A stretch of DNA of 64,000 nt from Coleophoma eucalyptorum (Eukaryota > Ascomycota > Leotiomycetes > Helotiales > Dermateaceae): the NCBI GenBank assembly GCA_026120035.1, contig JALRME010000034.1, forward strand, positions 186,001 through 250,000. Direction: 5' to 3'. The notes under the pieces are model-generated. The model made no database searches and had not been told where the DNA came from. It was given only the letters and a program-made list of their open reading frames with translations. Position 1 is the stretch's first letter, and each line of letters opens with the position of its first letter. The position numbers were made by a program, and so were the translations under genes. Shown piece by piece: positions 29,393-49,104 of this stretch.

Positions 29393-31744
29393 ATGGAGGC
29401 AACCATAGAGGAACCATCAAGCAACATGGATTTTGGTACAGACACTGGTTTCAATATCGATGACTTCCGACAATTCATGCTTTCTTTAGAGGAAGATGCC
29501 AATCTGCATGGAGACCTCAGTAATATACCATCCCAGCCAACCAACCTTCCTACCCCTTCCACAACGAACAGCGAAGTACCTCCTGTGCGTCAAATCAAAC
29601 GCAGACGCCCCAGAACTGTGAAGCCACGAAAACTCTCCCCAACCAGGAAATTACCTCGTTCCAAATCCACTGGTGTAATTGTTAGTCATCCCACCCATGC
29701 TTAATTGCTCCAACTACGGATAGTGATGCGAATTTTGCAGACGAAGGAGTAATTCCATGACTTACAGCTTCTTATCGCAGGAAAGTAAAACTCATTTGAT
29801 CTCACGGTGACAAAGCCTTTGACTCTTTTACAGAACAATACCTTTCCGGCCGAGTCTGACGCTGTCCAACACAAGAGCGTGGCCTCTCAAGTTGCTATCG
29901 CCGTCGATCCTCACACAGCTGAACCCGGCATCGCTTCATCTCCAGCACCAAGTGTTGCTATATCACAATGTTCAAGCCAGCCCAAGAACTTCCCACCGCC
30001 TTCTGTGACATATAATTTTATCAACAATGAACTCACCCTCTCCAAGTCCAGGCATTGGACTATGGTTCAAGATCCTGTATAACGTCTCCCATAATATTAA
30101 ATATCTGGTCTAACCGTCAATAGGCAACAAGAAGGCTTCTCACACGTGTCCCAGATTCGACATACGCCGAAATTCAGGCTGCTGTCACATGCGCCCAAAC
30201 AGCATATGAGTCTTGGAGGCAAGTCTCATCTTCTCTACGACGGTCGGCTATGCTACGCCTGCTTGAAATAGTGCGGCAGAATTCGCACAAACTTGTATGT
30301 CGTCAATCACGCATGCAATTGCCATTTCTAACAACGAAATAGGCGGTATCTATCTGTACAGAGGCCGGAAAGACAATGAGCGATGCTACCACAGAGGTTT
30401 TGAAAGCCATTGGCATAATTGAGTCAGCTTGTACAATTCCAAATGAAGCACTAGGATGTCATTTTGTGCATGATTCCACCGAGATGCACACTATCACAGA
30501 ACCTCTGGTGCGTCTTTGTCGAGGCTTGATAGTTCTTTGCTAATTGTGTAACAGGGCGTTTGTTTATCGGTAACGCCATTCAATTTTCCGCTAATGGTCC
30601 CTTTGTGGTCTATTCCTTTTGCAATAGTAACAGGCAATACGGTTATACTCAAGCCTTCCGAATTTTGCCCGTCCGTTGCCATGCTTCTCGCAGAATGCTT
30701 TCTCAAGGCTGAGTTTCCTCCCGGAGTCATGAACATCGTTCATGGTGGCCCGAATACAACTGATCAGCTCCTTGCACAACCTCCTATTCAAGCTGTGTCT
30801 TTTGTGGGATCAGATATTGCAGCTGAAAGGGTATATCAGCATTCCATCGCTACTCGGAAGAGGATTCAAACCGATTGTGGCAGCAAGAATCACGGTGTCG
30901 TGTTACATGATGCGACAAAAGAACAAACATTATACGCGATTGCAGGCAGCGCCTTTGGTGCTGCAGGCCAGAGATGCATGGCACTCAGTGTTGTTATACT
31001 GGTTGGAGAGACAGCGTCGTGGCTTGACGATCTGGTTACGATCGCTTCTTCCCTTACGGTCAGCTGCGGGTCAGTTCCCGGTGTAGATATCGGGCCTTTG
31101 ATCACTCCGGCGGCGAAAGAACGAGTTGAGTGCATGATCCAGAGTGCAGTGGAAGAGGGTGCGACACTGCTCCTAGATGGCCGCAATGTGTCTGTTCCTG
31201 ATTATCCCAATGGAAATTTCGTTGGCCCGACTATTCTTTCCAACGTACAGCCGTACATGGAGTGTTATCAAATGGAAATATTTGGTCCGGTGCTGTCATG
31301 CCTGACGGTTGAAACTATGGAAGAGGCAATTGATATCATAAACAATAATAGATGTATGCTCCATGCCCCCTGGAATGACCATTAAGGTAGCTGATCACTA
31401 GTTAAGATGGGAATGGGTGTTCCATTTTTACGACAGATCCGGTCGCAGCTCAAATATTTCAACGCAAAGTGAACGTTGGTCAAATTGGGGTGAACGTTCC
31501 CATCCTTGGTAAGCTAGTTATATATTAAACAAAGGAATAAAAGCTGACACTCATTTCTAGGCTCACCCGGCCCTCTTCCTCGGACAAGTAACAAGGATTC
31601 CTTTATGGGTGGTATGTACCTGATATTAATATTTACAATCCATCCATTTTTTCGCTAACAACACCAGATTCAAGCAGTCGAAATCCCTGGCAATTCTTCA
31701 CAATGACGAAGACTATTACATCACTGTGGCGCCGACCATGGTAA
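29393..31744 (+). CDS. Malonate/methylmalonate-semialdehyde dehydrogenase-like (ALDH6 family) with N-terminal extension
   Basis: Aldehyde dehydrogenase of the ALDH6 type. Family members oxidise malonate or methylmalonate semialdehyde to acetyl- or propionyl-CoA plus CO2, usually in mitochondria. Exons 29393-29680, 29834-30076, 30124-30294, 30343-30507, 30555-31353, 31407-31508, 31561-31611 and 31668-31744 give 631 residues in one frame. ALDH6 marks include [12 protein letters not shown] with nucleophile C430, SKNHGVV (Asn where other ALDHs have the general-base Glu), [15 protein letters not shown] [14 protein letters not shown], and [14 protein letters not shown] restored across a splice. The first 170 or so residues precede the domain and are low-complexity, acidic then strongly basic ([12 protein letters not shown]). 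The neighbouring URC1 and UPRT suggest a role on the C3 product of uracil breakdown. Confidence 0.82.
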
Positions 31745-31878
31745 ATTAGGAGTTAAGGACTACATGGGACGAGAATTAAAAAGAACTGGTACGTAAACAT
31801 TGTTTGGATGGTTATAGCTATTGCAGCGCGGATATAGATGTGCATATCAACATGTTTGTATTAAATTAAGGTGCTTCA

Positions 31879-32552
31879 TCATGATAGTGCTGTCCCAAAC
31901 AACCGATCGCCAATATCCCCAACTCCCGGCGAGATATATCCATGACTGTCTAAAGTATCGTCTAATGCTCCTACATAAAACTTTGTTCTCTCTGGCCAAC
32001 TTTCTGTTGCACGTTCTAGCCCACACTTCGTAGCTAAAATTGCCAAAAAAGATATTTCCTCTACTCCCCAGTCTCTGAGAAGACAAAGTTAGACAGGATA
32101 GTTAGAACAGAGTTAAAACAATCTTACTTTAAAATTGACACAGCGGCAGCCGCTGTTCCGCCCGTGGCAATCAATGGATCTACCACAAATGCGTGTTTTA
32201 TTCTTGCATCTTTCAACGGTAACTTATTGTAATACTCGACCGGCTGTAAGGTCTCCTTCTCTCTGAACAAACCTAAGTGATAAACAGGAACAGAAACCTC
32301 TGCTGGAAGCAGTCTGAGGAAAGCATCTGACATGGCAAGGCCAGAACGAAGGATGACAATCAGCGCGATCTGCTCGCTGCTTGATGTAAGAGACTTTGCA
32401 TTAGGCGTATTATCAAGTGCATCCTTGGTCAATATTTCCGTCATTTCAGCCACCAGAAGGCGGACTGCCGATGAAGGGAGCGTAACATCCCTTAATTGTG
32501 CGAGTTTTGATTGGAAAGCCGAGGAAGCTAGATATTGTACATTGAGCGACAT
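31879..32552 (-). CDS. Uracil phosphoribosyltransferase (Upp-like type)
   Basis: Converts uracil plus PRPP to UMP. Exons 32552-32128 and 32074-31879 encode 206 residues; the 53-nt intron leaves phase intact (ILK|DWGVEE). Family marks are ILRSGLAMSDAFLRLLP, the LGLFREKETLQPVEYYNKLP block, the PRPP loop VVDPLIATGGTA, and the C-terminal uracil-binding GYISPGVGDIGDRLFGT. These agree best with bacterial-type Upp enzymes. The start is taken at MSLNVQYL. A further in-frame ATG at 32666 lies inside the transposon end and would add 38 residues. It is divergent from URC1, with a transposon between the two. The Urc6-type role in uracil breakdown is an inference from context. Confidence 0.88.
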
Positions 32553-32636
32553 GGCTGGACTGAAGAGGTTTTGGAGGAACTGCAATCTGGCTGGACCCCA
32601 GCGACGTTGTTGCAGCAGGAATATACGAATCTCATA

Positions 32637-32684
32637 ACGTATATGATAAGCGAGTGTACCATACAAGCGAGTGTACCACTTTCT
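32637..32684 (+). repeat. Left terminal inverted repeat of Fot1-like element
   Basis: 48 bp beginning ACGTATATGATAAGCG, matching exactly the reverse complement of 34447-34494. It contains AAGCGAGTGTACCA twice in direct orientation, 17 bp apart, which are likely transposase binding sites. Confidence 0.93.
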
Positions 32685-32734
32685 AGCATAACACGCTACT
32701 TTTACTTTAATAGACTATAATTCTACAACGAAAC

Positions 32735-34404
32735 ATGATAGAGCTTTCATATGAAAGCAGAGTTAACCTTGTACTCGAAATACTTCGTACGACCCCGAAA
32801 ATAAGCCTTAGGGCTATAGCAAAGACCTATAATATCTCGTATGTTACTATCCTACGGCGACGCGCCGGAATTCTTCTACGACGTGATTCTCCACCAAACT
32901 CGAAGAAACTTACAATACTCGAAGAAGAAGCTATTCTACGTTATATAATTGAACTAGCGACGCGATTATTTCCTCCTCGATTAAGTAGTGTTGAAGATAT
33001 AGCAAATCAACTCCTACGTGTACGCGACGCGCCTCCAGTTGGCAAGCGCTAGGCCTATAACTTTGTATAGCGCCAGCTAGAGCTTCGTATACGCTTTACT
33101 CGAAAATACGACTACCAGAGAGCCTTATACGAAGATCCGAAGGTTATTGAAGTATGGTTTACGCTCGTACGGAATACAAAAGCCAAGTACGGGATCGTAG
33201 ACGAGGATATATATAACTTTAACGAAACGGGATTTATAATAGATATAATATTCCCTGGAATGGTAGTTATAACTACAGAAGGTTGTGGTAGGACTAAATT
33301 AGCCCAGCCTAGGAATAGAGAATAGGCTATAGTAATATAGGGAGTTTCTACGATAGGGTGGGCTCTTCCACCTTTTATTATTCTAGTAGCCTAGTACCAC
33401 CTATAGAACTAGTACGAAGAATGCGACCTACCAGCTACTTAGGCTCTTGCAACTATAGATAATGGCTGGACTACCAATCCTATAGGCCTGGATTGGATTA
33501 AGTATTTCAATAAGCATACATAGGGTCGTACGAAAGGTAGATATCGTCTACTAGTCCTGGATGGCCATAAGAGCTACCATTCTACGAATTTTGAGCTTTA
33601 CTGCTAGGAGCATGATATTATTACCCTCTATATGCCTCCGTATTCTTCCCACCTTCTATAGCTACTAGACGTAGGCTGTTTTGGGCCTCTGAAGCAAGCA
33701 TATGGTCGACAGATAGAGGACTTGATGCGAGTATATGTTAACCATATTAGTAAGCTTGAATTCCTCTATGGATTCCGGGCTGCTTTCTTCAAAGCCATAA
33801 CCGAAAAAAACATCCAGGGAGGCTTTGCTGGAGCTGGCCTGGTACCGTACGACCTAGAGAGAGTTTTATCCAAGCTAGACGTACAGCTACGGACCCCGAT
33901 ACCACCCCTAGCTGTAGCTATAGGTAATACCTAGGTTACAAGAACACCCTAGAATCCAATTGAAGCTGACTCTTAGACTGGTCTTATTAAGACACGGATT
34001 TCAAATCACCAGAATAGCTTACCAACACCAATTTTGGATGCTATAGACCAGTTTTCAAAGGGGGCAAAGGCAATAATGCACGAAGTAGCCCTTCTTCGAG
34101 CCGAGAACTCTACGCTACGAAGGGCAAATGAAGCCCTTAGTAAACGTCGACGGACTAAAAAAACTAGGCTACAGCATGGAGGAACCCTTACAGTAGAAGA
34201 AGGTCAGGCGTTAGCTAACCAGAAGGCTATAAATGATTAGGTAACCCAAGAAGTTCGTCAGGGTAGAAGAACTAAAAGTGGGGCTCGTACAAAGACCAGG
34301 TGCTGTAGGGTATATGGAAAGCCTGGTCATAATGCCCGTACGTGTCGAGAAGCTAGTTCATCATTAGATTTAGTGATTTCAGATACTATAGTAGTTGATT
34401 CATA
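32735..34404 (+). pseudogene. Degraded Fot1/Pogo transposase
   Basis: The reading frame from ATG 32735 keeps one register through the element but carries about 18 in-frame stops, all TAG. Intact pieces show the N-terminal helix-turn-helix (LRAIAKTYNISYVTILRRR), the CENP-B-type region, and DDE parts: NFNETGF (usual NFDETGF, Asp to Asn), VLDGHKSYHS, and DVGCFGPLKQAYGRQIEDLM. A basic coiled coil and a zinc-knuckle remnant GKPGHNARTC follow, with one cysteine changed to tyrosine. Stops replace expected Gln or Trp codons, as RIP would produce. The element cannot encode an active enzyme. Confidence 0.9.
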
Positions 34405-34446
34405 GGGTTGGTATAGTAGATTTAGTAATTTCATATAGGGTAGTTA

Positions 34447-34494
34447 AGAAAGTGGTACACTCGCTTGTATGGTACACTCGCTTATCATATACGT
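34447..34494 (-). repeat. Right terminal inverted repeat of Fot1-like element
   Basis: Exact inverted copy of 32637-32684, followed by TA at 34495-34496. The perfect match of the two ends contrasts with the heavy mutation of the coding part. Confidence 0.93.
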
Positions 34495-34963
34495 TATAGA
34501 AATTATCGAATGCAGCTCTAAAATGTCTTGCCAGCCTATCAAATACAGAGGATAGATTTATGCCAGTAGTTGACTAAATTGTTGTAGTCTATACCAGGCG
34601 CAGGGGCAGGAAAGATGGGGGTAAGGAAAGTGGTGGAACGAAGTTCATGCCTATATAGTTAGGCATCGCTTCGTCGTTTCTAGCAAAATCTCCCGATAAG
34701 ATCTTAGCGATATTATTATAGTTAGTTCTGGCTGCAGTACCCCTCTCGATCTTATCGAAGGTTCACTTGTATTCCAAATTACCAATACCTCCAAGATCCG
34801 TCTTTCGAAGAAGTACCTCGGATATACCATGACAGTGAGTTACAGTCTGTCAGGCTGCCTATAATTTCACGGCCACGAACACGAAGGCGTAATAGCGAGC
34901 CTTCCTTGCCTAATCCACTCTCATTGCCTTGAACCTTGTCTCCTACCTGTGAGCGATTATAAG
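34495..34963. promoter_or_regulatory. URC1-side promoter remnant
   Basis: 469 bp between the transposon end and the URC1 start. With the 84 bp left on the other side of the element, it would make a divergent promoter of about 550 bp before insertion. No operator was recognised. Confidence 0.5.
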
Positions 34964-36568
34964 ATGGGTGGAGGGACTCTCCCCCTAATAAACACATCTG
35001 ATTCGAGTCAAACCGAAACTGATACTTCGCCTCCTGCCCGAAAGCGCGTGAAATTAGATATGGCTCCGATTGCTCTTGAGCCGGAAGAAAAGCAGTTAGA
35101 TAAGGTGGTAAAGCCATTGCCTAACACTCTTGCAAAACAATATGGCAGCCGGATCATTGTAAGAACCCCTATGATCATAGCTAGACTTAAGCTGGAGCAG
35201 GGAGTTAAACTGACAATCCTCTAGCTGACAACTTATCCTGGACAAAGTGTTGTTGACCCGGTCCCGTTAAACTGGGGTGCTTCAGACCCAAAAGTACGAG
35301 GACCAGTACTGGTCTCCCGTAGCAGTGGTACTCTGAAGAAAAGAAATGCGATTGGTGCTCACGGGGGAAGCTATAGTGTGTATAATGCCCTGGCTATCGC
35401 CGCTGGTGACCTACCGCCAGACTTCCTTCCTGATTTCAAAAACACCCAGCCGACGTTTGAATTTCCTCAGCAAGAAGCATGGGGAGATCCAACAAAGATA
35501 GCCTCTATGGATCCTTTTGGGCATGATGTCGTTCGTCACTATAGCCAGTACTTAGACCAAGGCCTTGATGTACGACCGACGATCGCTATTACCAGAGCCA
35601 ATATGAGAGTTGCGGAAATTGCCGAGGCTGTCCGAGATGGTAAGATCGAGGTAGACGGAAATATCGTTGTTAATAAGACTGGAGATGTTCGAGTAACCAA
35701 GGTCGCTGTGGAGCCAGTATGGTATCTACCAGAAGTTGCTGCACGATTTGGAATCGCCGAAGGTGTGCTACGACGTGCACTGTTTGAATACATGGGTGGA
35801 AGTTACCCAGAGCTCATCACACGAACTGACCTGAAGGTCTTCCTCCCACCAATCGGTGGCTTGACCGTTTATATATTTGGCAATCCAGAGCGTATTTCCA
35901 ATCCAGATCTCCGAATCGCGCTTCGTGTACACGACGAATGCAATGGCAGTGACGTATTTCAGTCAGATATCTGTACATGTAGGCCATACCTTACCTTTGG
36001 TATCCAGGAAGCAATCAAGGAGGCCCAGAGTGGTGGCAGTGGTATTGTGATATACTTTAGAAAAGAAGGCCGTGCTCTTGGGGAGGTTGTCAAATATCTC
36101 GTCTACAATTCTCGCAAGCGCGGGGGTGACACGGCGGATAAATACTTCCAACGCACTGAGAATATTGCTGGAGTCCGTGATGTAAGAAGATTCACATCTA
36201 TTTCTCGATTGCTGCTAATCACATTGATCAGATGCGATTCCAAGCCCTGATGCCAGATATCCTCCACTGGTTGGGTGTAAAGAAGATTGACCGCATGCTC
36301 TCTATGTCAAATATGAAGTACGATGCCATCGTGCAGCAAGGAATTAGCATCGTCGAACGTGTTCCAATTCCCGATGGTGGGTTGTCTAATACAAGGTCCC
36401 TACCACGGTTGCTGATTGACCATAGATATGATACCAACAGACTCTCGTGTCGAGATTGATGCAAAGATCAATGCCGGATATTTCACATCTGGAAAGCAAA
36501 CAACGGATGAAGCCCTCAAGGATGTCAAGGGGCGAGGGTGGGAGGAATGGGAGGATACTTTACATTAA
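34964..36568 (+). CDS. URC1: URC1-type uracil catabolism protein (GTP cyclohydrolase II-like)
   Basis: GTP-cyclohydrolase-II homologue of the URC pathway, the non-reductive uracil catabolic route described in Lachancea kluyveri. Exons 34964-35158, 35225-36181, 36232-36376 and 36426-36568 encode 479 residues in phase. The catalytic zinc cysteines are present as C304, C315 and C317 (ECNGSDVF..ICTC), the spacing of bacterial RibA. The URC1-specific N-terminal half includes TTYPGQSVVDPVPLNWGA, GAHGGSYSVYNALA and MDPFGHDV. The C-terminus includes RFQALMPDILHWLG and DSRVEIDAKI.AGYFT. It is a riboflavin-type cyclohydrolase relative that is believed to act on the uracil-derived nucleotide rather than GTP. 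The UPRT genes on both sides fit that role. Start ATG 34964 is the first in frame; an upstream exon is possible. Confidence 0.92.
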
Positions 36569-37226
36569 CAATAGCTTCGCAATAATCAGCACTGTCTTCA
36601 AGTATAATCTGGTACCATTTATCAGCATTGTGAGCTGTGGTGAAACTGCTCAATTTGCGTGCATATCAAATCTACCAGAATGTCTATCTTCATTTTATTT
36701 CTTATATTTTTGCTCTAAACTCAATTGCCAATGTGATTACCCTCTAGTTAATGAAAGTGCTTGATCATGCTGCATAAATGAGAACATATATCTTCATTTT
36801 GCGTGCTTTACTCTAACAATTTCTGAATACTCTTAGTCTATATCAAGTAAAATATACTGTAAAATAATCTCAATTCTCATCCGGAAAGCAATAAAACGAT
36901 AAGGAATTTAGCAATGACACCTTTACGAGTTAATCGACGCCGACGTGAAACGCCGAGGCGACAAGGGACGTGCAATCAATAAAACTGAATGCCTAAATTT
37001 GCAGCTTGATGCCTAATCTTGTGCGAGGAACAACCTTCACACAGTCTTTTCATAATCCCTTCATAACCGTAGTTTTATTTGTCCAAAAGATAAGAAAAGT
37101 CTTGGAAAAGATCAGCGGGGCCAAGATCTTATTTAGGCTCTACCAAAATAGCTTATGGAAATAGCGTGATGAAAGGACCTGAAATAAAGCTGTTATCCCA
37201 GCCAATTTGTGAGTTTCAATGCCGCG
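36569..37226. other. Intergenic region, no gene seen
   Basis: 658 bp of AT-rich sequence between URC1 and the second UPRT, both on the plus strand. It should hold the URC1 3' end and the UPRT promoter. No coding potential beyond short open frames. Confidence 0.5.
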
Positions 37227-38113
37227 ATGGGGTCTGTAGAAATGCCCTCCAATAGCAATGCCTCGCATATCTCAACCCATCTCCTCCCGCAAGATGCACA
37301 GTTACTGTCATTGATGACACGATTGCGCGATGTCAACAGCACTGGAAATGATTTCGTGCGCACGGCCAACATAATCGGACGACAGTTGGTTAGTGAAGGT
37401 ATAATATAGCACGTGTCTCTTTCGAGCTGAAGTCTTGCTTACAGTATTCAAAGCATTAAATCACGTCCCGTATATAAAGGAAGAGGTCAAAACGGCCACA
37501 GGCACTTCATACGTAGGCCTAAGACCGGCAAAGGGCGTGTGCGGGATAAGTATATTGAGAGCTGGGGCAAGCTTAGAACAACCATTAAGAGACTGCTGGG
37601 AGTAAGCGAACCACGGGAGAATAAAGTAGACTCGGTCATTAATCATTTTCAGTGGTCCATTGACTTTTGGCAAGATTCTTATACAGCGTGATGAGAAAAC
37701 GTGCCTTCCTACTCACCTATATTCGAAATATCCGCCAAATCTACAATCCCAGAGTTAGTACTTTTATAGAATCCTATTGAATTTGACTAAATATTTGTAG
37801 TTGTCTTATTGCTCGAACCCATGTTGGCTACCGGTGGATCGGCTTGTAAGGCAATTGATATTATCAAGGAACAGGGTGTCGATGAAGAGAACATCATATT
37901 TGTCAATTTCGTGGCCTCAAGGAAAGGACTCCAGGTCATCAACGAGCGATATCCGCGCCTTAAAGTTGTCACAGCGGCTGTGGACGAACATCTAGATTCT
38001 CACAGGTAAGATTCAAATCTGACAAAATAGCAGAGTATATTTTAACGAAACCTTCTAGCCACGTGGTTCCAGGATTGGGTGACTTTGGGGATCGGTATTA
38101 TGGGACAGAATAG
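37227..38113 (+). CDS. Uracil phosphoribosyltransferase (Fur1-like type)
   Basis: Second uracil phosphoribosyltransferase, 229 residues from exons 37227-37398, 37445-37601, 37653-37753, 37801-38005 and 38059-38113, all in phase. Family blocks are LRPAKGVCGISILRAGASLEQPLRDCW, FGKILIQRDEKTCLP, the PRPP loop LLLEPMLATGGSACKAI and the C-terminal HVVPGLGDFGDRYYGTE. These match the fungal Fur1 type, unlike the Upp-like copy at 31879-32552. The first acidic residue of the PRPP loop is Glu where Asp is usual. It probably makes UMP from uracil. It may feed salvage or the URC1 route; neighbours (URC1 before, PRPP synthetase after, same strand) favour the latter. Confidence 0.9.
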
Positions 38114-38418
38114 CATGTCAGAAATATTCCAATATGCACTTTGACTAGATTATCATGACTCAATTTAATGAAATTGGAGACGTTTAGACGATACCACGTC
38201 AAGATGATGGGAAAATGGTAAAGATAAGAGCGTTTTGAGGTGATCAATGATATCTTCTAACTGCAATTTGATATTGCTATGTCAACCACTAAAATCTCCA
38301 AAATTACTAAGATCCACCTGCTAAAATCTCTATACTGAAATATTTTGCCTTATCAATTTGTTACAATTGGCCTGATATGTCACAATGTTAAGAGTCAAGA
38401 AATATATAAAGGTCTTCA

Positions 38419-38460
38419 CCTCCCTCCCTCCCTCCCTCCCTCCCTCCCTCCCTCCCCCCC
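38419..38460 (+). repeat. (CCTC)n microsatellite
   Basis: About ten CCTC/TCCC units ending in a run of C, 25 bp before the PRPP synthetase start codon, so probably in its 5' leader. Confidence 0.95.
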
Positions 38461-38484
38461 AAAGATTCACGGTCAACCGAAGCG

Positions 38485-39721
38485 ATGTCGAATTCCTTGA
38501 AGCTCCTCTCTGGTATATCACACTACTGATGCTGACAAAACAATGACTAACACCTCACAAGGCAGTAGCCATCCTAAGCTGGCTAAATTGGTGTCTCGAC
38601 AGTAATTTATGGAATACTCTTTCTCTTGAACGATTGCTAATGTGAGACAGACTTTCACATCAATTTGGAACGTTGTCTTCCAGCCGATTCTCCAATGGGG
38701 AGACCCTTGTTACCATCCGTGAATCAGTGAGAGACCAGGATGTCTTCATCATACAGACCGCCGCTGAACCTGTTAACGATATGCTTATGGAATTACTAAT
38801 CTCAATAAGTGCATGCAAGATAGCGTCTGCTCGACGCATTACAGCCGTTATACCTTGCTTTCCATACGCTAGGCAGGACAAGAAGGATAAAAGTCGAGCA
38901 CCAATCACCGCGAAACTGGTGGCAAATATGTTGGAATGTGCTGGCTGTCACCATGTGATTGTAAGTCATAATGCTTGTAAAGCTTACAAGACTAACATAT
39001 GTCATTCTTTGTAATTAGACTATGGACCTCCATGCTTCTCAGATCCAAGGTTTTTTCAATATACCCGTGGACAAGTATTTCATCCCACGCGATATGCCAT
39101 AGGGGACATGCTAACGAATTTAACAGTGTAAGACCGAAATAACTTTTCTCATAACCCTATCGCTAACGATTTTAGCTATATGCGGAGACCACTATGGTAG
39201 AGTATGTTCGGCAAAACTACGATACCAACAACGCTATCATCGTTTCCCCTGATGCTGGCGGTGCAAAGAGGTAAGCTATCCTCGTCCCATATTTCTTCAA
39301 GCCGGCCATCTTACAAAAGACCAGAGCCGCAGCGATAGCCGACAAGCTGAAAATTGATTTCGCACTCATTCACAAGGAGCGGAAAGTTGCAAACCAGGTC
39401 AGCCGAATGATCTTGATTGGCAATGTGGTTGGGAAGGTGGCTATCATCGTGGATGATATTGCCGACACCTGTGGCACGTTGGCCTTGGCGGCGGGGATCC
39501 TGAAAGAGCATGGGGCTGCAGAGTGTATCGCTTTAGTCACCCATGGGTTCTTGAGTGGAAAGGCCATTCAGGTCATTCAAGAGAGTGCTTTGGGAAAAGT
39601 CGTCGTAGCCGATACGCTTCCGCTCTCGTGTGAGGCGATTGCTTGTGAGAAAATTGCTACGATGAATATTTCCGGGGTCATCGCAGAGGCAATTCGAAGG
39701 ACGCACAATGGAGAGTCGTGA
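38485..39721 (+). CDS. Ribose-phosphate pyrophosphokinase (PRPP synthetase)
   Basis: Makes PRPP from ribose 5-phosphate and ATP. Exons 38485-38512, 38562-38601, 38651-38960, 39019-39074, 39127 (one base), 39176-39270 and 39325-39721 give 308 residues. Family marks are [86 protein letters not shown] and the PRPP loop [11 protein letters not shown]. The highly conserved VDNLYAE is only obtained if a single T at 39127 is an exon (AA|T|CTA). PRPP is the co-substrate of both neighbouring UPRTs, so a dedicated catabolic copy is plausible. A housekeeping copy elsewhere in the genome is expected. Confidence 0.9.
39127..39127 (+). other. Predicted one-nucleotide exon (T) in PRPP synthetase
   Basis: Flanked by intron 39075-39126 (GTATTT..CTAAC..ACAG) and intron 39128-39175 (GTAAGA..CTAAC..TTAG). 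Both have full splice signals. The joined codon AAT restores Asn in VDNLYAE. Removing the whole 39075-39175 span as one intron leaves the frame shifted by one base. Confidence 0.75.
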
Positions 39722-40122
39722 GTGTTCTCCATGCTTTATTGGGATGGGACTGATAATATTATAGGATATCACAGCTGTTTTTATGATGTAAAGCTCTGGC
39801 TTTTTTGCTGGCCGGAGTTCCAAGGTTATAATCAAGTGATTTCGGGTCAGCATGAGGCATTAGAACATACTATTTACCTATACTTAACCTTCAATCAGAT
39901 TATGTAGTCCTTGGTAGATCCGTTTATAAGAGATTAGATATTACAATGTTTTGTTTCTCCAACGTATAGATTGCAATTGACAACAACAAAGAGAAGATCT
40001 TATTGTATTTACGGCACGCACTATAGAAAGCTTTATCATGTGTGGTATCAAAGGGACTGAATTACACAAATGATGAAAGTCACCAAGCTTGTACTTTTAT
40101 ATTTTATTAATGGTAAAATTTT
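39722..40122. other. Convergent 3' region, no gene seen
   Basis: 401 bp between the ends of the PRPP synthetase (plus) and decarboxylase (minus) genes. It is presumably 3' untranslated sequence. Confidence 0.5.
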
Positions 40123-41229
40123 CTATCCCAGCCGTAGAACCCTCATAGCATTTCCACCCATCGCAAGCTCCGCACTTTCTGTGCCCTTTCCAAACGCCAT
40201 ACCAACAGCATTTACATTTGTGCTCACACTGGGCCACTCCGTCTCACCGTTCAAAGGCGGGAAGAATGGATGATCAGTTCCAAACATAACTCTATCCCGA
40301 CCACTCGCTTCAACAGCTGCATTTAGTCCCACCTTATCATAGATAACCGCATCCAGATAGATGTTTGTCTTCAGGACGTTCCCGATAGTCTGCCGCTCAG
40401 GTCCAAGTTTTCCCTCGGCTTTCAAGTGACCATCGTGCTCAATACAACTTTCTATTCGTCCGGCTAGGAAGGGTAGGGTGCCGCCACTATGGGCAAGAAT
40501 CATTTCTAGTTTGGGGACCTGACTAAAGGCGCCGGACAGGATCATAAGAGTAACTGCGATGGTCGTCTCCAGCGGAAAGCCAAGGGCCAACGGTAATACG
40601 TGGCCGTAATCGTTGCTACGAGGTCCCCACACGGAGGATGGGAGGCCATAGTGAGGGTGTAAAAAGATAGGGAGTTGTGCGTCGGCCAGCGCATGGAATA
40701 TAGGGAGAAGATTCGGATCGTCAAGCCCCTCGCCCAGTCCAGTTGTTCCGAGGATAATACCACGTACGTACTTCAGAGTTAACAGGCGTGAGATCTCTTC
40801 CAGTACGACAGGTGCTGGAGCACTTAATGGTAGGGTAGCAAAGAAGAAGAGTCGCCCAGGATATTGGCCACAGATAGAATCGACTTCGTCGTTGATGGCC
40901 TTCGCTACACTACTCGCTTCATTTGATGGCAGCCAGTCTAACCACGGGTTTGCAAGAGAGATGACAGAAATATCTATGCCGTGCGTGTTCATAAACTCTA
41001 TCTTCTTCGCAATATTATAATACTCTGGCCCGACGGGACGGCCCCGAGAGGTGCTTTCCGTATCCTCGGCGGGCAGAATCACAAGTCGGAGCTCCTCTGA
41101 AGGTGGGAAAGCGCGGACATAGGGAATTGCCGAGCGTGATTGCAGAAGCGAGATGTACGATGGAGGGTAGACATGCGTGTGAATATCGACTACTTGCATT
41201 TTCGCTGGCGGTGGGGTTGAAGGAGGCAT
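40123..41229 (-). CDS. Iso-orotate (5-carboxyuracil) decarboxylase
   Basis: Amidohydrolase-superfamily (ACMSD-type) decarboxylase, 368 residues, no intron. Iso-orotate decarboxylase removes CO2 from 5-carboxyuracil to give uracil, the last step of fungal thymine salvage. Zinc ligands are visible: H17 and H19 in DIHTHVYPPSY, H191 in FLHPHYGLP, and D319 in MFGTDHPFFPP. The long blocks RGIILGTTGLGEGLDDPNLLP, YGHVLPLALGFP and LAHSGGTLPFLAGRIESCI agree closely with what I recall of the characterised Cordyceps/Metarhizium enzymes. The start MPPSTPPP fits the usual length. It is divergent from thymine 7-hydroxylase, its metabolic predecessor, which strongly supports the call. It is cytosolic, with no targeting signal. 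Confidence 0.94.
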   Translation of the reverse strand: MPPSTPPPAKMQVVDIHTHVYPPSYISLLQSRSAIPYVRAFPPSEELRLVILPAEDTESTSRGRPVGPEYYNIAKKIEFMNTHGIDISVISLANPWLDWLPSNEASSVAKAINDEVDSICGQYPGRLFFFATLPLSAPAPVVLEEISRLLTLKYVRGIILGTTGLGEGLDDPNLLPIFHALADAQLPIFLHPHYGLPSSVWGPRSNDYGHVLPLALGFPLETTIAVTLMILSGAFSQVPKLEMILAHSGGTLPFLAGRIESCIEHDGHLKAEGKLGPERQTIGNVLKTNIYLDAVIYDKVGLNAAVEASGRDRVMFGTDHPFFPPLNGETEWPSVSTNVNAVGMAFGKGTESAELAMGGNAMRVLRLG

Positions 41230-42125
41230 GATTATCCTCGTTAAGATGGTAATACTGAAGCTCTATATGGAACCTGAATTTTGTGGATTCAGCTTTCGCG
41301 GTTGAGCTTACTCAATATGATGCTTCTGAGGAAGTCAATGGGAGCAGTTTGAAGTACAAGGAGTTCGAGCGCGATATGATTCAATAGTATTATGCCGGCT
41401 TGTGTAATTTATTCTACTGACTCTCAACCAAGCCATCTCTCCCTTTGCCTTATCTCTGATTTTTCATGAAGCAAAATTACTAGATAGGTGTTGTAGCAGA
41501 AGTCGCTGCTCAAGCGTGGACACCAAAAATGCCGTCACGATTTATCGCGATACCTTAAATATTAGGCTTCAGGTCTCCAATCTTAGGCACCTCGTCAAAC
41601 GTTATGAGAATACTTCGTCTTCCAGCAATGCTTATCTTATCTTGCAGAAAGTCATACACAGTAGTCAGACATTAAAGTAACCCTAGAAGGAAACCGAATA
41701 CACGCTACTCGTCGTCGTTGAGCTAGGTGTTGTGTTGGCCGAATTAGGAGCAACAGTCGCGGAATCATCAGCTATACCCCAGTTTCAATCCCAATATCAT
41801 GCCCTACTCACACCATAATTATCTCTAATTGTACTACTCGTACCATACTTATCTTGTCTGCCCGACTCGCACCACACTTATCACTGCTGATTATTCTACA
41901 CTGTGCAACATCATTGATAGCCTACACGCTTTTGAATCATGACGCACAAGCAAATAACCCGCGGCGCGCTGGACGTGTAAGCATATAAAGTGAATAACCT
42001 CTCTCCGAGATTGTGATAAAGTACCCCAGTCTCATCATCAACGCTATATCTGACGTGTCCCATTTGACACCTCCCCAGCTATAACTAGTGGAGTTTCCAA
42101 TCAAATCAAACCAAACACCAAAAAG
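41230..42125. promoter_or_regulatory. Divergent promoter, iso-orotate decarboxylase / thymine 7-hydroxylase
   Basis: 896 bp between the two starts. Promoter function is inferred from layout. Around 41820-41880 the phrase CTACTCACACCATA / CTCGTACCATACTTATC / CTCGCACCACACTTATC recurs with small changes, a possible cluster of binding sites. Confidence 0.5.
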
Positions 42126-43200
42126 ATGGAGCCAGCAACAAGTGCCACGGATTCGTCCAAGCTCATTATTCCTGTCAGACTCTCCCGTATCTAAAAATGG
42201 CTGTTGTTGGGCACTGGTCTAACTCATCACGTAGGTCATTGACTTTGGCATGTTCCAGAACGGCAGTCCAAGCGAGCGTGCTCAGACGGCAGCGGCATTG
42301 CTGGCGGGCTTTCAGACTGCCGGGTTTGTCTACCTCAAGCATCTACCTATCAGCAACTCGACCATCAGCACGGCCTTCGCCACTTCAGCCAGCTTCTTCC
42401 AGCGATCAACCGAGGAGAAACATTCTCTATCATGGACAACTCCGGCGGCGAACCGTGGCTACAGCGCACCCGGCCGGGAGAAGACCAGCACCCTGTTGAG
42501 CAAAGATGACGTGGAAGCCCTCCGATCGCAAGCACCCGACCTCAAGGAGTCCTTCGAAATCGGACGGGAAGGCGATAAGGAGCACCCTAACCTGTGGCCC
42601 ACATCCGACGAAGCATCCAAGGAGTACAAGTCAGTGATGCTCGACTTTTTCAAGCAGTGCCGTGACCTCCACGTGAATGTCATGCACGCAATTGCAGTTG
42701 CCATGGGTTTGAACGAGAACTACTTTGATGGCTACACAGATCTGGGCGACAACACCTTGCGCCTACTGCACTATCCTGAGGTGCCCAAGTCGGTGTTTGA
42801 TTCCAACAAGTTACAGGTACGCGCTGGCGAGCATACGGACTTCGGCTCCATCACACTGCTCTTCCAAGATGATCGCGGCGGGCTTCAAGTCAAGAGTCCT
42901 GATGGTACGTTTGTTGACGCGACACCCATGCCGGGTACGGTGGTTGTGAACGCTGGAGACCTTTTGGCTCGATGGTCAAATGATACTATCAAGAGCACGT
43001 TACACCGAGTCGTGGAGCCGCCGGCTCCAGCAGAGGAAGATGTGCACCCCGCAAGATACTCGATAGCCTATTTCTGTAATCCTAACCGCGAGAGTCAAAT
43101 TGATGTCATTCCGGGCACCTTTGGGCCAGAGAGAGAACGAAAGTATAAGGGTATCAATTGTGGAGAATATCTGGTCCAACGACTAGCTGCTACCTATTAG
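42126..43200 (+). CDS. Thymine 7-hydroxylase (thymine dioxygenase)
   Basis: Fe(II)/2-oxoglutarate dioxygenase of 337 residues: exons 42126-42173 and 42235-43200, with the join giving KLIIPVIDFGMF. Thymine 7-hydroxylase oxidises the thymine methyl group in three steps to 5-carboxyuracil. The iron triad is H216-x-D218 (GEHTDFGSITLLFQD) and H273 (STLHRVVEPP), with the 2-oxoglutarate arginine in PARYSIAYFCNPN. Long stretches such as NRGYSAPGREK, DNTLRLLHYP, VVVNAGDLLARWSNDTIKST and the terminal EYLVQRLAATY match the Neurospora enzyme as I remember it, making a generic isopenicillin-N-synthase-like role unlikely. It sits head to head with iso-orotate decarboxylase. The donor GTCAGA is slightly unusual. 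Confidence 0.94.
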
Positions 43201-44308
43201 ATAATGTCCCTTGTACGTTCTATTGTTGTTCTATTTTAGCTCTAGCATAGTTATATATTTAAATAAGCATGTGCGTTTACGAAAATAGTGCACTTTCTAT
43301 TCTGTGATTAAATGAGCTTATGGCACAGATATATGAAGTGTAATATCATTATAACTGACCATTAGTATACAACCTAACCTGTTGTGTTGTGTACATATCT
43401 TTGGCATTCACCTATCATAGTTCTAGTGAATACTTCAAACGCCCATTTTGTTATGGTGAAATGGCTATAATGACTTGCCTGAGACACAGAAGAAAAAATC
43501 AAAGTTAAATTAACCAAATCACTGCGGGATTATGCACCACATGTAATCATGATATGTTGAGAGTTTCAGACAATACATACGAGTTAAGAGAGAAAGACTG
43601 CACTATTCAATATCGCTCGTTAAATTTAAAGAATAGAATGTAGACAGGGCGTTAATGTATAGAATTTGATTAAAGTGTTCACACTATCGCCGAATCCACA
43701 GATTAATGGGCTTGGCTTCATCACTACTGTATAAATGTATAAACACGACAGCTTTTGAGTTTGAGTTCCAGCTCTACTCAGCTAGGACAAGCCTGCTTAG
43801 ATTTCTTGGAGAACCCGATAGATCGCTTATTTTGTTATGCTATAGGCACAATAAGTATATTGTAAAGTAGCGGAGTTGCCAAGTCACTCTCTTATGTACT
43901 GTTGGCAACCCTTACTAGATAACAGGCAATGTTCTAGTCGCCACGTAGGCCATTATGGAGGGATTCTCGGCAGCGGGTGGCGGGGTATTCGCTTATCGAG
44001 AGAAGGGAGTATAGAAACAAATGCACTATTCCACAGACCTATGCGACCGGGCTCGTTTGACACATGGCTGAAACTCAACGTGGTAGCCCATGCGATGCGA
44101 GCTAGCTGCCGAGGTCTGTCCTACTTACCTTGACTACTTATTAAGTTCAACAGCAATTGTTTCTACAAAATTTAAAAAAAATAGTGTTCACTTCTCTCAG
44201 ATTCTTTCTACTATTTCATTTAACTATCTCTTGCTAGAGTAGAAGTGTGTATGTTGTCGGTTGCAGCATTATAGCTCATTCCTTCATAGCGTTCGGATAT
44301 CAGAAACA
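43201..44308. other. Intergenic region, no gene seen
   Basis: About 1.1 kb between thymine 7-hydroxylase and the Sec14-like gene, same strand. A short open frame at 43876-44133 has no domain. Nothing else is evident. Confidence 0.5.
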
Positions 44309-45812
<1,504 letters not shown>

Positions 45813-46254
45813 TTGACCCGAAAGATAGTCAAGGATAAACGGTTCCTATATCGTTCGTGCATTGTATTTAGCTAATTGATAACCCGGCCAATAGACTTTA
45901 CTCAAAATCATAACGCTTTAAATCGATATATGTGACCTAAGACATTTCTGAAAATTTTCTTAATCATGGCATTTTTTCAATTTGGTTGTGGTAAGGCAAA
46001 AGCGTCAGATTTATAACCTTAAATCAACTCCATACTCAGCGACTTCGAATTTATAGTGGTTTCTAAATTTCCAGAGTTAGTTAGATATTGATATGAGAAA
46101 TTCCTAAGTAAGCAAAAGAACATTTAGGTATTTTGATTTCTCGAATTTATGTTAGTATGTTATGGAATTTCGGTCACAAGAATAGTTAGAAAGCACGACA
46201 TGCTGCCACAGCCAGATTTCAAGTACGCGAAAACTATTTTTGTTTGAATAAAGT
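45813..46254. other. Convergent 3' region, no gene seen
   Basis: 442 bp of AT-rich sequence between the Sec14-like and aldehyde dehydrogenase stops. Nothing recognisable. Confidence 0.5.
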
Positions 46255-47745
46255 CTATCCATATCTAGCATTTTCAACCTTGTCATCAAACCATGCAGGC
46301 AATACGCCATGGTTGAGCACAGTACTTTTGACCTTCGTGTAGCTCTCAAAGGCCTCTCTTCCATTCTCCTTGCCAATCCCACTCTGTCGGAACCCACCCC
46401 ACGGAGATGATGGATCATTCAGATGATGGCCATTGACCCAAACTACTCCGGCATCAACTTTCTCTGCAACCCGGTGCGCCTGTGTGAAGTCTCGCGTCCA
46501 GATGGAAGCGCCGAGCGCAAAGTCAGTTCCATTTGCAACTGCAATCATGTCCTCTTCCGAGCTGCATTTGAGGATGGCGATCACGGGGCCGAAGACCTCG
46601 TTGCAGGAGAGATCCGATTTGGAATGGGTTTCGATAAGAGTGGGCTCGAAAAAGAAGCCTTTCCGCACGGATGGCTTGCCACCACACAGAATCTTCCCGC
46701 CGTCCTCAACAGCTCGCGCGACAAAAGCAGAACACCTCTCTACCGAGGCCTTGTTGATGACAGCACCGATCTGTGTCTCGATATCGGTTGGGTCGCCAAC
46801 TCGCAATGCTTTGGTTCTCTGGACGAGCAGCTTCACAAAGTCGTCGTAGACATCGGCGTGAACGAGCAACCGGCTTCCAGTCACGCAGGTCTGTCCACTG
46901 GCGATGAAGCTTGCAAATAATGCCGCCTTGACGGCCTGCTCAATATCGCTGCCCATGCTCGGGAAAATACACACCGGGGCCTTTCCACCTAGTTCGGCCG
47001 TCATGGGGATCATGTTGTATGCGGCCACCGGAGCGATAGCGCGATAGGTTGCAAGACCGCCGGTCAGGTCGATGCGGGCCAGGTGTGAGTTCTCGCAAAG
47101 GAACTTGCCAGTATCCCTTCCATAGCCACTGATGATCTGGAGGGCGCCATCGGGCAGACCAGCGGACTGAAACAATTCACCCAGCTTCAACACGGACAAG
47201 GGAGCGAGTTCGGAAGGCTTCACGATAACGGTATTGCCAGCAGCCAGCGCGGCCCCGATCTTCTTGATAGCGATGAGTAGCGGGTGGTTCCATGGGGTGA
47301 TCTGGGCAACGACGCCAATGGGCAGACGGGTCAGGGTGTTGATAACGGGACCTTTGAAGGGCGTGACGGTGCCTTCGTGGACGCGAGCCAACCCTGCAAA
47401 GTACTCCAGCCATTCCGGAACGCGTGCCAGCTGCGTCTTCATTTCCCGTACCGGCCGGCCGGTCTGTCGCACCTCGAGATCCACGAACTCGGCCAGTCGA
47501 GATCGGAGCAACGAAGCGGCCTTGACCAGGACGGCGAACCGATCGGATGCTTCGGCTCGCGACCACGAACCACTGGCAAACTGCTGCTGCGACTTGGTGA
47601 CGATCTCAGCCACGACATTGTGGGGAGTGGCATCGATGGTGGCCAAAGGTAACTCGGTGGCCGGATTGATCACAGCAATACTCTCGGGCGATGGGGGAGC
47701 ATAGGCTCCATTAACCCAATTGGCAACATGTGGAAGATCAGTCAT
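46255..47745 (-). CDS. NAD(P)-dependent aldehyde dehydrogenase
   Basis: Standard ALDH-superfamily enzyme, 496 residues, intronless. It oxidises an aldehyde to an acid. Marks are TPWNHPLLIAIKKIGAALAAGNTVIVKPSE for cofactor binding, the general base E251 in MTAELGGKAP, the nucleophile C287 in SGQTCVTGSR, EVFGPVIAI, and SPWGGFRQSGIGKENGREA near the C-terminus. It is unlike the ALDH6-type copy at 29393-31744, having Glu at the base position and no CoA-dependent signature. No organelle signal is apparent. In the pyrimidine block it could act on an aldehyde intermediate, but substrate specificity is not readable. GC content is visibly higher than in its surroundings. Confidence 0.9.
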   Translation of the reverse strand: MTDLPHVANWVNGAYAPPSPESIAVINPATELPLATIDATPHNVVAEIVTKSQQQFASGSWSRAEASDRFAVLVKAASLLRSRLAEFVDLEVRQTGRPVREMKTQLARVPEWLEYFAGLARVHEGTVTPFKGPVINTLTRLPIGVVAQITPWNHPLLIAIKKIGAALAAGNTVIVKPSELAPLSVLKLGELFQSAGLPDGALQIISGYGRDTGKFLCENSHLARIDLTGGLATYRAIAPVAAYNMIPMTAELGGKAPVCIFPSMGSDIEQAVKAALFASFIASGQTCVTGSRLLVHADVYDDFVKLLVQRTKALRVGDPTDIETQIGAVINKASVERCSAFVARAVEDGGKILCGGKPSVRKGFFFEPTLIETHSKSDLSCNEVFGPVIAILKCSSEEDMIAVANGTDFALGASIWTRDFTQAHRVAEKVDAGVVWVNGHHLNDPSSPWGGFRQSGIGKENGREAFESYTKVKSTVLNHGVLPAWFDDKVENARYG

Positions 47746-48351
47746 GGCGGCGGCAGCGTGACGTGGAATTATTGATCCGGGACTGAGAGTCAGGGTTATA
47801 TGTTAGAAAAAGTGTATAGTTGGTCAAACCCCACTTCTCCTTAAGTACCAAGCACCTCATCCTTTACCCGTCAGCGTCAGTGTCATGCTGTACGACATTC
47901 CTGGAATGTTAGGATCCTGTCGATTGGTCTCCACAATTCTGTCGCATGTAACCTTCCTTATCTTCTGTCTTAGAATTTGAGTTACGATATTCTATCACTA
48001 CTCACTGCTATCCAAATTAAATAACATCTGTTAGAAGCCATCCTTTCGAGCTATGGTCTATGGTGGGGGTGGGATTCTGTAATCACATGACATGGACTGA
48101 TTGCCTATTACCTGAGAGTATGCATTTAATAATGACTTTAGAAGTATCTAGTCAAAAAATCTAATACAGCGGATAGCTAGAGTATTCGCTATCTCTCAAA
48201 TATTGTATCCCCTGGGTATATGGAATTAAACAACAGGACTCATTTCATGGTTGCTTGCACGTTAGGCCAAATAAATGGACTAACTACACAACAACGTCTT
48301 TATTCCGGCGAATAAAATTCCACGATAAATCAGCCCTTAGTGATTATGCGA
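47746..48351. other. Intergenic region, no gene seen
   Basis: 606 bp upstream of the aldehyde dehydrogenase and downstream of the deoxyribosyltransferase-like gene. Promoter function is inferred from position only. Confidence 0.5.
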
Positions 48352-49104
48352 TCATAGAAGTCCCTTTGACAGCTTTTTCTGCATGAAACTGAGAATACGA
48401 TCTCGGTTTACCTCTGCGCTCTCGACCTCGAGTCCAGGCATCAATGCCAACCAGTCATAAACGGCAGGTCGGAGGTTCGCCGGCAATCTTGGCTCCATAC
48501 TCAAGACCTTCTCAAATTGAGCAATGACGGCTTCTGCCGCTACGTTTCTGGAATTCGTTCCAAAAGTTGGATTTTCTTGTTTCCTTTCGGCCAATTCAGC
48601 AAGATCCTCCTTGTACAGCCATAGCCCGTTCATGACCACCTTCTCGGTCCTAGGCCAAAAGTCACACATCAAGTTCCAGGGACTCCCCCATTGATCGCCG
48701 GCATTGCGATAGTCGGTTCGAAGAACCACGGCGGGGATGTCCGCCATTTTGGCAATCATAAACTCCACGACCGTCCCGGAGTCCGGGTCTTGCCCATCGA
48801 AGACAAATAGCGCAAGGTCGGAATTCAGCAGGGCATAGATGTCATTATCGCGGATCTTTTGGGCGGATGCATCTCTTTGCTCGTGATCTTGAGGTAAATT
48901 GCCCTTGAATTTACCTCCGGATAACCGTGAAATGGCTTCCGAGAGGTGGACGTTATAATGTAGCTCAGCGGAGCTAAACAGTGGCCCAGCGTGATAATAA
49001 GTGTATGTCTTAGCAGTTTCGGGCTCTGATTGTGTCACGATGTCGCCCGGCGTTTCTGCGTTTGAAGACGACATTTGGTTTGGTGGCCGGCTTGTTTGTG
49101 CCAC
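48352..49104 (-). CDS. Nucleoside 2-deoxyribosyltransferase-like protein
   Basis: Member of the nucleoside 2-deoxyribosyltransferase family, 250 residues, single exon. Such enzymes cleave the N-glycosidic bond of deoxynucleosides through a glutamyl intermediate, swapping or releasing the base. The fold's start is YTYYHAGPLFSSAELHYN (the YxAGPLF motif). The active-site Asp cluster is NDIYALLNSDLALFVFDG, and the probable nucleophile Glu lies in DSGTVVEFMIAKM. An N-terminal tail of about 35 residues is low-complexity; the ATG at 49074 (MSSSNAETPG) is an alternative start. Placed beside thymine and uracil catabolic genes, it could release thymine from thymidine. That role is inferred. Confidence 0.83.
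   Translation of the reverse strand: MAQTSRPPNQMSSSNAETPGDIVTQSEPETAKTYTYYHAGPLFSSAELHYNVHLSEAISRLSGGKFKGNLPQDHEQRDASAQKIRDNDIYALLNSDLALFVFDGQDPDSGTVVEFMIAKMADIPAVVLRTDYRNAGDQWGSPWNLMCDFWPRTEKVVMNGLWLYKEDLAELAERKQENPTFGTNSRNVAAEAVIAQFEKVLSMEPRLPANLRPAVYDWLALMPGLEVESAEVNRDRILSFMQKKLSKGLL

What the first reader, a model, noticed from the sequence alone, without database searches (positions are those of the whole stretch)
29393..49104. Candidate thymidine/thymine-to-uracil-to-C3 catabolic gene cluster
Eight genes in 20 kb fit one route. They are a deoxyribosyltransferase-like protein (thymidine to thymine), thymine 7-hydroxylase (thymine to 5-carboxyuracil), iso-orotate decarboxylase (to uracil), PRPP synthetase, two uracil phosphoribosyltransferases (to UMP), URC1 (opening of the uracil-derived nucleotide), and an ALDH6-type semialdehyde dehydrogenase suited to malonate semialdehyde from 3-hydroxypropionate. 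A further aldehyde dehydrogenase is adjacent. Thymine salvage and the URC pathway are each known in fungi, but I know of no description of both physically joined with their PRPP supply. The enzyme identities are strong; the joint pathway is inference.
Basis: partly seen in the sequence, partly recalled or inferred. Interest (0 to 1): 0.92.

Follow-up and report, generated by a model that had tools for sequence, protein, structure and literature searches.

The report
Thymine and uracil breakdown gene cluster
A filamentous fungus carries, side by side, the genes that would turn thymine into uracil and break uracil down for nitrogen and carbon; they look intact, share likely nitrogen-control sites, and duplicate genes kept elsewhere in the same genome.

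Summary
In a 45.3 Mb ascomycete genome (close to Coleophoma by two proteins), window 29.8-43.2 kb holds seven fitting genes: MMSDH/ALDH6, two uracil phosphoribosyltransferases (UPRT), URC1, PRPP synthetase, iso-orotate decarboxylase and thymine-7-hydroxylase. Frames are intact; two 5' ends are unsettled. Six promoter stretches hold 12 GATAAG (nitrogen GATA-factor) sites, more than any other 6-mer or any of 1000 resampled sets. It is a second set: a conventional URC locus (transcription factor, URC4, UPRT, URC1) and another decarboxylase/hydroxylase pair lie on other contigs. URC4 was not found here. The PRPP synthetase belongs to a distinct fungal clade; in 4 of 8 species seen in both lists it shares a contig with URC1, in two of them four locus tags away. 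Joining to the thymine genes was not seen elsewhere, but the test was weak. Best reading: a nitrogen-regulated accessory thymine-to-uracil-to-C3 cluster, a new variant of the known URC cluster. The deoxyribosyltransferase-like gene and second aldehyde dehydrogenase are weakly tied to it. A DNA transposon splits the URC1/UPRT promoter. The hydroxylase has Phe for Tyr217; in the Neurospora enzyme this change slows mainly the last oxidation step.

The parts
29834..31744 (+). ALDH6-type CoA-acylating (methyl)malonate-semialdehyde dehydrogenase, 7 exons modelled, 5' end not settled (a further exon from 29393 is possible)
   Evidence: TIGR01722 511.8 bits, cut-off 448.5; 55% to its nearest paralog, on C5; stop position counted by hand
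31879..32552 (-). uracil phosphoribosyltransferase 1 (URC type), 206 aa, one intron
   Evidence: (47% to the UPRT of the C10 URC locus; both have one intron, after the matching Lys)
32634..34497 (.). multicopy DNA transposon with 51-base exact terminal inverted repeats, 82 bases from the UPRT1 start and 467 bases from the URC1 start
34964..36568 (+). URC1 (GTP cyclohydrolase II-like), 479 aa, three introns
37227..38113 (+). uracil phosphoribosyltransferase 2 (closest solved relatives 1upf and 1bd3), 229 aa, four introns
38485..39788 (+). PRPP synthetase of the URC1-linked clade, 314 aa; the model needs a one-base exon at 39127
   Evidence: stop codon (last three bases) counted by hand
40123..41232 (-). 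iso-orotate (uracil-5-carboxylate) decarboxylase, 369 aa, single open frame
42197..43200 (+). thymine-7-hydroxylase; main exon 42235-43200; an ATG at 42197 (hand count) is a possible 5' exon, not settled; NcT7H Tyr217 is Phe here
41449..41882 (.). five GATAAG sites in the divergent decarboxylase/hydroxylase promoter (41449, 41631, 41636, 41848, 41877)
34695..34756 (.). two GATAAG sites upstream of URC1 (34695, 34751); the other core sites are at 29169, 36898, 37089, 38223, 38349
44243..45812 (+). CRAL-TRIO (Sec14-like) protein, no evident part in the pathway; two open frames, gene ends not modelled
46255..47745 (-). second aldehyde dehydrogenase (betaine/hydroxymuconic-semialdehyde-like, below the NCBIfam cut-offs shown); membership doubtful
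   Evidence: start counted by hand
48352..49074 (-). nucleoside deoxyribosyltransferase-like protein; membership doubtful

Best explanation
A second, accessory pyrimidine-catabolic cluster under nitrogen control. Thymine is oxidised in three steps by the hydroxylase to 5-carboxyuracil, which the decarboxylase turns into uracil. PRPP synthetase and the two UPRTs convert uracil to UMP, URC1 opens the ring of the uracil nucleotide, and the ALDH6-type enzyme takes the released C3 unit (malonate semialdehyde) to acetyl-CoA. The remaining ribosylurea part would be cut by URC4 coded elsewhere (C10 or C13), giving urea for nitrogen. Shown: gene families, open frames, joining, GATAAG enrichment, contig sharing of URC1 and this PRPP synthetase type in four other fungi. 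Inferred: substrates, fluxes, co-expression, nitrogen control in fact, and that the thymine and URC halves act as one pathway.
For: Families and open models; best PDB relatives are the expected enzymes; 14 of 15 metal, cofactor and substrate residues of NcT7H kept; 12 GATAAG in 3130 promoter bases, in 5 of 6 stretches: 0 of 1000 first-order resamplings and 0 of 2000 random genomic sets reach 12, 0 of 1000 GC-matched sets, commonest of all 6-mers (next 10), 6 in 8940 bases of gene bodies; PRPP synthetase in a 23-row clade with 100% SH-aLRT apart from the other fungal enzymes, four members sharing a contig with URC1; the four linked URC1s all fall in the 53-row clade that holds the window URC1 and not the C10 one; 72 of 80 bacterial URC1 loci carry URC4 and 68 a UPRT, so URC1-URC4-UPRT is a widespread core.
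Against: No URC4 found in the cluster, although 72 of 80 bacterial loci have it beside URC1. None of the 113 PF02133 permease matches lies on this contig. Thymine-URC joining was not seen in another species: 0 shared contigs between 119 URC1 and 120 hydroxylase rows (weak, the species hardly overlap). A transposon lies 82 bases from the UPRT1 start. The 53-row URC1 clade has modest support (83/69) and holds 53 of 92 rows, so four of four falling in it would happen by chance about one time in nine (hand calculation). GATAAG was tested after GATAAGA came up as the top 7-mer, and in that first blind scan 9 of 100 resamplings did as well. The C10 URC promoters hold no GATAAG. A. nidulans HxnY, which acts in nicotinate breakdown, also keeps the iron, 2-oxoglutarate and ring-stacking residues of thymine hydroxylase (PMC9304392, passage), so those residues alone do not prove the substrate.
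Confidence: 0.7

Rival explanations
1. Two independent sub-clusters that became neighbours by chance: a URC1-UPRT-PRPP synthetase unit and a decarboxylase/hydroxylase pair, each working in its own route without a joint thymine catabolism.
For: The other pair stands on C24 between reading frames that look like a flippase and an arrestin (my reading), and the fetched stretches of the C10 and C68 URC1 loci gave no match to the pair. Joining of pair and URC1 was not seen in other species (weak test).
Against: Both halves have GATAAG-rich promoters (5 sites in the pair's promoter, 7 in the others); random placement of both beside one URC1 is rare (1 of 200,000 draws, post hoc); uracil, the pair's product, is the URC substrate.
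Confidence: 0.2
2. A decaying or silenced duplicate cluster, with the C10 and C24 sets doing the work.
For: Redundant genes exist; transposon in the shared URC1/UPRT1 promoter; best listed matches only 84% (URC1, 78% covered), 75% and 76%, while the C24 hydroxylase is 94.5% identical to a Coleophoma protein and the C10 URC1 lies on a short branch beside one.
Against: The modelled frames are open through many introns, hydroxylase residues are kept and GATAAG sites are dense.
Confidence: 0.12
3. Pure salvage: the cluster feeds thymine-derived uracil and PRPP into UMP synthesis for growth, and URC1 and ALDH6 are incidental.
For: The thymine hydroxylase belongs to the thymidine salvage route in PMC4787775 (passages); two UPRTs and a PRPP synthetase would suit it.
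Against: URC1 and the MMSDH-type enzyme belong to degradative families and lie in the cluster; GATAAG sites suggest nitrogen scavenging.
Confidence: 0.1

Closest known systems
URC uracil-catabolic gene cluster (Lachancea kluyveri URC genes; S. pombe urg1/urg3 locus; this genome's C10 locus)
   Same: URC1 with UPRT; PMC3869809 (passages) describes a widely conserved cluster with UPRTs, transporter and zinc-finger regulator responding to nitrogen availability
   Different: No URC4 found here and no regulator shown to belong; adds a PRPP synthetase, an ALDH6-type enzyme and the thymine-to-uracil pair
Fungal thymine/thymidine salvage enzymes (Neurospora thymine-7-hydroxylase; solved fungal uracil-5-carboxylate decarboxylases 4hjw, 4hk5, 4lak)
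   Same: Hydroxylase and decarboxylase of the same families; divergent pair as on C24
   Different: Here joined to uracil-degrading genes; hydroxylase has Phe for Tyr217 (0 of the 120 listed relatives do)
URC1-linked PRPP synthetase of Exophiala, Fonsecaea and Aspergillus cavernicola
   Same: Same PRPP synthetase clade, URC1 on the same contig
   Different: Thymine genes not shown to be there

Membership tests
Thymine-7-hydroxylase | Iron ligands His214, Asp216, His271 and 2-oxoglutarate ligands Arg190, Tyr194, Arg286, Ser288 (NcT7H numbering) | tested here: met
   all kept
Thymine-7-hydroxylase | Substrate residues Asn87, Glu122, Tyr217, Phe292, Asn294 | tested here: inconclusive
   four of five kept, Tyr217 is Phe; the paper reports Phe or Trp there in some species and an active Y217F mutant (passages)
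Thymine-7-hydroxylase | Oxidises thymine | not testable with these tools
   no assay; HxnY, a related enzyme of another pathway, keeps many of these residues
Iso-orotate decarboxylase | Closer to uracil-5-carboxylate decarboxylase than to other amidohydrolase decarboxylases, with the stretches DIHTH, LHPHYG and FGTDHPF | tested here: met
   487.9 bits against 98.2 for the next family; the stretches align; their role as metal site is recalled
URC uracil-catabolic cluster | URC1 present with an open frame | tested here: met
URC uracil-catabolic cluster | UPRT next to URC1 | tested here: met
   two UPRTs
URC uracil-catabolic cluster | URC4 (DUF1688) next to URC1 | tested here: not met
   PF07958 matches only on C10 and C13; so it works like a URC cluster but is not a complete one
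URC uracil-catabolic cluster | Genes induced by uracil and needed for growth on it | not testable with these tools
   no expression or growth data
Methylmalonate/malonate-semialdehyde dehydrogenase (ALDH6) | Score above the curated MMSDH cut-off over the full profile | tested here: met
   511.8 bits, cut-off 448.5, profile 4-477 of 477
Nucleoside deoxyribosyltransferase | Pfam family and catalytic Glu | tested here: inconclusive
   PF05014 46.9 bits (cut-off 28.8); a Glu aligns with solved transferases (its catalytic role recalled); substrate and reaction unknown

The most novel reading that the evidence does not exclude
A self-contained thymine-to-acetyl-CoA nitrogen-scavenging locus in which oxidation of the thymine methyl group is shared: the hydroxylase's Phe for Tyr217 slows 5-formyluracil oxidation, and the neighbouring aldehyde dehydrogenase (46.3-47.7 kb) completes it to 5-carboxyuracil, while the dedicated PRPP synthetase pays for ring opening through UMP.
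Probability: 0.12. Interest if true: 0.75.

Novelty: new variant of a known kind. Interest (0 to 1): 0.6.

Why it matters
The papers seen describe the fungal thymine enzymes as a salvage route (PMC4787775, passages; PMC6305744, start of abstract in a listing) and uracil breakdown as a pathway of its own (PMC7530994, passages). A locus that joins both, with a PRPP synthetase and likely nitrogen-control sites, makes a full thymine nitrogen-scavenging route testable by a few gene deletions. The recurrent URC1-linked PRPP synthetase clade also fits the idea that uracil is opened as a nucleotide, steps that PMC7530994 calls not characterised.

Tried and rejected
Shared Zn2Cys6-type (CGG/CCG) pairs in promoters: no spacing in more than 2 of 9 regions. 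Blind 7-, 8- and 9-mer scan over the 9 regions: no word beyond what resampled sets also gave (GATAAGA in 6 regions; 9 of 100 resamplings reached 6); only the later count of GATAAG sites in the 6 window regions stood out. Footprint between the two decarboxylase/hydroxylase promoters: only matches of 9-13 bases, though both carry GATAAG (5 and 4). Bacterial precedent for thymine-URC joining: of 80 loci, 0 with the decarboxylase, 1 with a distant (29%) dioxygenase, 0 with PRPP synthetase, 3 with an ALDH6-like gene (7 of the 80 are shorter than 9 kb). A linked permease: none of the 113 PF02133 matches is on C29. Paralog of the deoxyribosyltransferase-like protein: none by sequence; one other PF05014 gene, on C8. 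tBLASTn of the decarboxylase on plasmids: the 20 rows listed of 306 records are amidohydrolases or unnamed at 30% identity or less. tRNA scan of the window: none. Literature searches for a fungal thymine-URC cluster listed none that names one; the library lacks most subscription journals, and the primary URC papers are only recalled here. The contig flanks L022 and L023 were used only as background and not annotated. No structure was predicted.
Full report
Setting. The window is C29:186001-250000 of a 45.26 Mb genome in 101 contigs. It is an ascomycete fungus close to Coleophoma: its C10 URC1 lies on a short branch beside a Coleophoma crateriformis protein and its C24 hydroxylase is 94.5% identical to the Coleophoma protein. 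No record name was given, so the species is not stated.

What is there. Pfam on ten long reading frames gave aldehyde dehydrogenase, UPRTase, GTP_CH_N plus GTP_cyclohydro2 (URC1), PRPP synthetase domains, Amidohydro_2, DIOX_N plus 2OG-FeII_Oxy, CRAL-TRIO, a second aldehyde dehydrogenase and a deoxyribosyltransferase domain. I built spliced models by hand with GT..AG introns of 46-66 bases; URC1, both UPRTs and the PRPP synthetase read through without a stop, and so does the ALDH6 from 29834 on, 535 aa. The ALDH6 start and the hydroxylase 5' exon are not settled. NCBIfam places the ALDH6 above the MMSDH cut-off, URC1 above NF005536, both UPRTs above NF001097 (but below TIGR01091), and the PRPP synthetase above two family cut-offs, NF002320 and TIGR01251.

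Thymine enzymes. The hydroxylase matches Neurospora thymine dioxygenase (5c3p) at 453.6 bits, the best different enzyme being at 111.5. Of 15 active-site positions taken from the structure paper (PMC4787775, section 11 read), 14 are kept; Tyr217 is Phe, which neither the 120 listed relatives nor the C24 copy shows. [quoted passage not shown] So this enzyme may still work but be slow at the last step. A caution: HxnY of Aspergillus nidulans, of the nicotinate pathway, is structurally close to thymine hydroxylase and keeps the iron, 2-oxoglutarate and ring-stacking residues (PMC9304392, passage). The decarboxylase matches 4hjw at 487.9 bits, the next family at 98.2.

A second set. Whole-genome searches show other copies of several of these genes. 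C10:629-637 kb holds a fungal transcription factor, URC4, a UPRT and URC1, a conventional URC locus; the window URC1 is 75.8% identical to its URC1 over 421 aa and UPRT1 47% to its UPRT. C24:1748-1751 kb holds a second divergent decarboxylase/hydroxylase pair, 73.5% and 72% identical, between reading frames that look like a flippase and an arrestin (my reading). C68 holds a third, many-exon URC1-like gene some 2 kb from a UPRT. A second URC4 is on C13; no URC4 match lies on C29.

Relatives. Among the 120 rows listed per search, the best matches to the window proteins reach 84% (URC1, 78% covered), 75% (PRPP synthetase) and 76% (hydroxylase); with the closer Coleophoma kin of the C10 and C24 copies this points to a patchy distribution (inference). 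In the URC1 tree of 92 rows (90 of the 120 listed, those of 380-520 aa, plus two models) the window copy falls in a 53-row clade (support 83/69) and the C10 copy in another. In the PRPP synthetase tree of 64 rows (63 chosen of the 120 listed, plus the model; quick method) the window protein is in a 23-row clade with 100% SH-aLRT, apart from the other fungal enzymes. In the hydroxylase tree (79 rows, quick method) the window copy groups with four unnamed metagenome rows at support 80.

Linkage elsewhere. The lists give contig lengths and, in some names, locus tags. URC1 and PRPP synthetase rows share contig length and species in four cases: Exophiala spinifera (PV08_05868 and PV08_05872), Fonsecaea monophora (AYO21_07279 and AYO21_07283), Aspergillus cavernicola (200 kb contig) and Exophiala viscosa (3.6 Mb contig, distance unknown). 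By my reading of the truncated names, eight species occur both in the URC1 list and in that PRPP synthetase clade; the other four (Aspergillus californicus, Penicillium lividum, Clonostachys rhizophaga, Clonostachys rosea) show different contigs. The four linked PRPP synthetases are in the window's clade, and the four linked URC1s in the window's URC1 clade, which however holds 53 of 92 rows. Hydroxylase rows share no contig with URC1 or PRPP synthetase rows (119, 120 and 120 lengths compared; one URC1 row has none), but the species hardly overlap, so this does not decide the matter. Among 80 bacterial URC1 loci, 72 had URC4, 68 a UPRT, 3 an ALDH6-like gene, 1 a distant dioxygenase, 0 PRPP synthetase and 0 decarboxylase.

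Regulation. The six core promoter stretches (3130 bases) hold 12 GATAAG/CTTATC sites in 5 of 6 stretches. Of 1000 first-order resamplings 0 reached 12 and 7 reached five stretches; of 2000 random genomic sets 0 reached 12 and 3 reached five stretches; the looser HGATAR gave 24 against a mean of 12.9, reached by 2 of 1000. GATAAG is the commonest of all 6-mers there (next 10), the next permutation of its letters has 5, GC-matched sets average 1.9 with 0 of 1000 reaching 12, and gene bodies of the cluster hold 6 in 8940 bases. GATAAG is the binding core of AreA/Nit2-type nitrogen regulators (recalled). The second aldehyde dehydrogenase has 1 site, the deoxyribosyltransferase-like gene 0, so I draw the cluster at about 29.4-43.2 kb. 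Against this: the motif was tested after GATAAGA came up as the top 7-mer in a scan where 9 of 100 resamplings did as well, and the two C10 URC promoter stretches have none.

Transposon. Between UPRT1 and URC1, which diverge, lies a 1.86 kb multicopy element with 51-base exact terminal inverted repeats; copies about 96% alike lie on other contigs. It lies 82 bases from the UPRT1 start and 467 from the URC1 start.

Chemistry and prior knowledge. [quoted passage not shown] That malonate semialdehyde precedes 3-hydroxypropionate and is reduced by URC8 is recalled from Rasmussen 2014, not seen. On that basis an ALDH6-type enzyme is an oxidative alternative to URC8.

Verdict. What no paper listed in my searches describes, as far as the listings and passages seen show, is the joining of the thymine pair and a PRPP synthetase to URC1. 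It is a variant of a known kind. Whether it acts as one pathway is untested. On this check I lowered confidence from 0.72 to 0.70 because the blind motif scan, the size of the URC1 clade and the HxnY caution had been left out.

Noticed in passing
window 39075-39175: The PRPP synthetase frame is kept only if a single T at 39127 is an exon of one base between GT..AG introns of 52 and 48 bases, each with a gctaac stretch; this restores the conserved VDNLYAE motif, which the C22 paralog has without an intron there.
   Followed up: partly
window 42235-43200: Phe in place of NcT7H Tyr217 in the thymine hydroxylase; the 120 listed relatives all have Tyr.
   Followed up: yes
L024 914-5984 (C68): Third URC1-like gene, split into about nine matching pieces, near a UPRT that is 45% identical to UPRT2 over 132 aa.
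   Followed up: partly
P0047 and similar rows (Aspergillus): Several Aspergillus URC1 proteins carry a PF00701 aldolase-type domain as well, perhaps a hint at a later step.
   Followed up: no
window 5031-8027: NACHT/NPHP3 plus ankyrin-repeat protein, NLR-like, 998 aa open frame.
   Followed up: no
window 22809-24155 and 25789-26643: Fungal transcription factor domain and MFS transporter upstream of the cluster; no link shown.
   Followed up: no
window 34964-35158: URC1 has an N-terminal extension with PARKRVKLD, resembling a nuclear localisation signal (recalled motif); one of four fetched relatives, P0005, has KKRPRLD.
   Followed up: no
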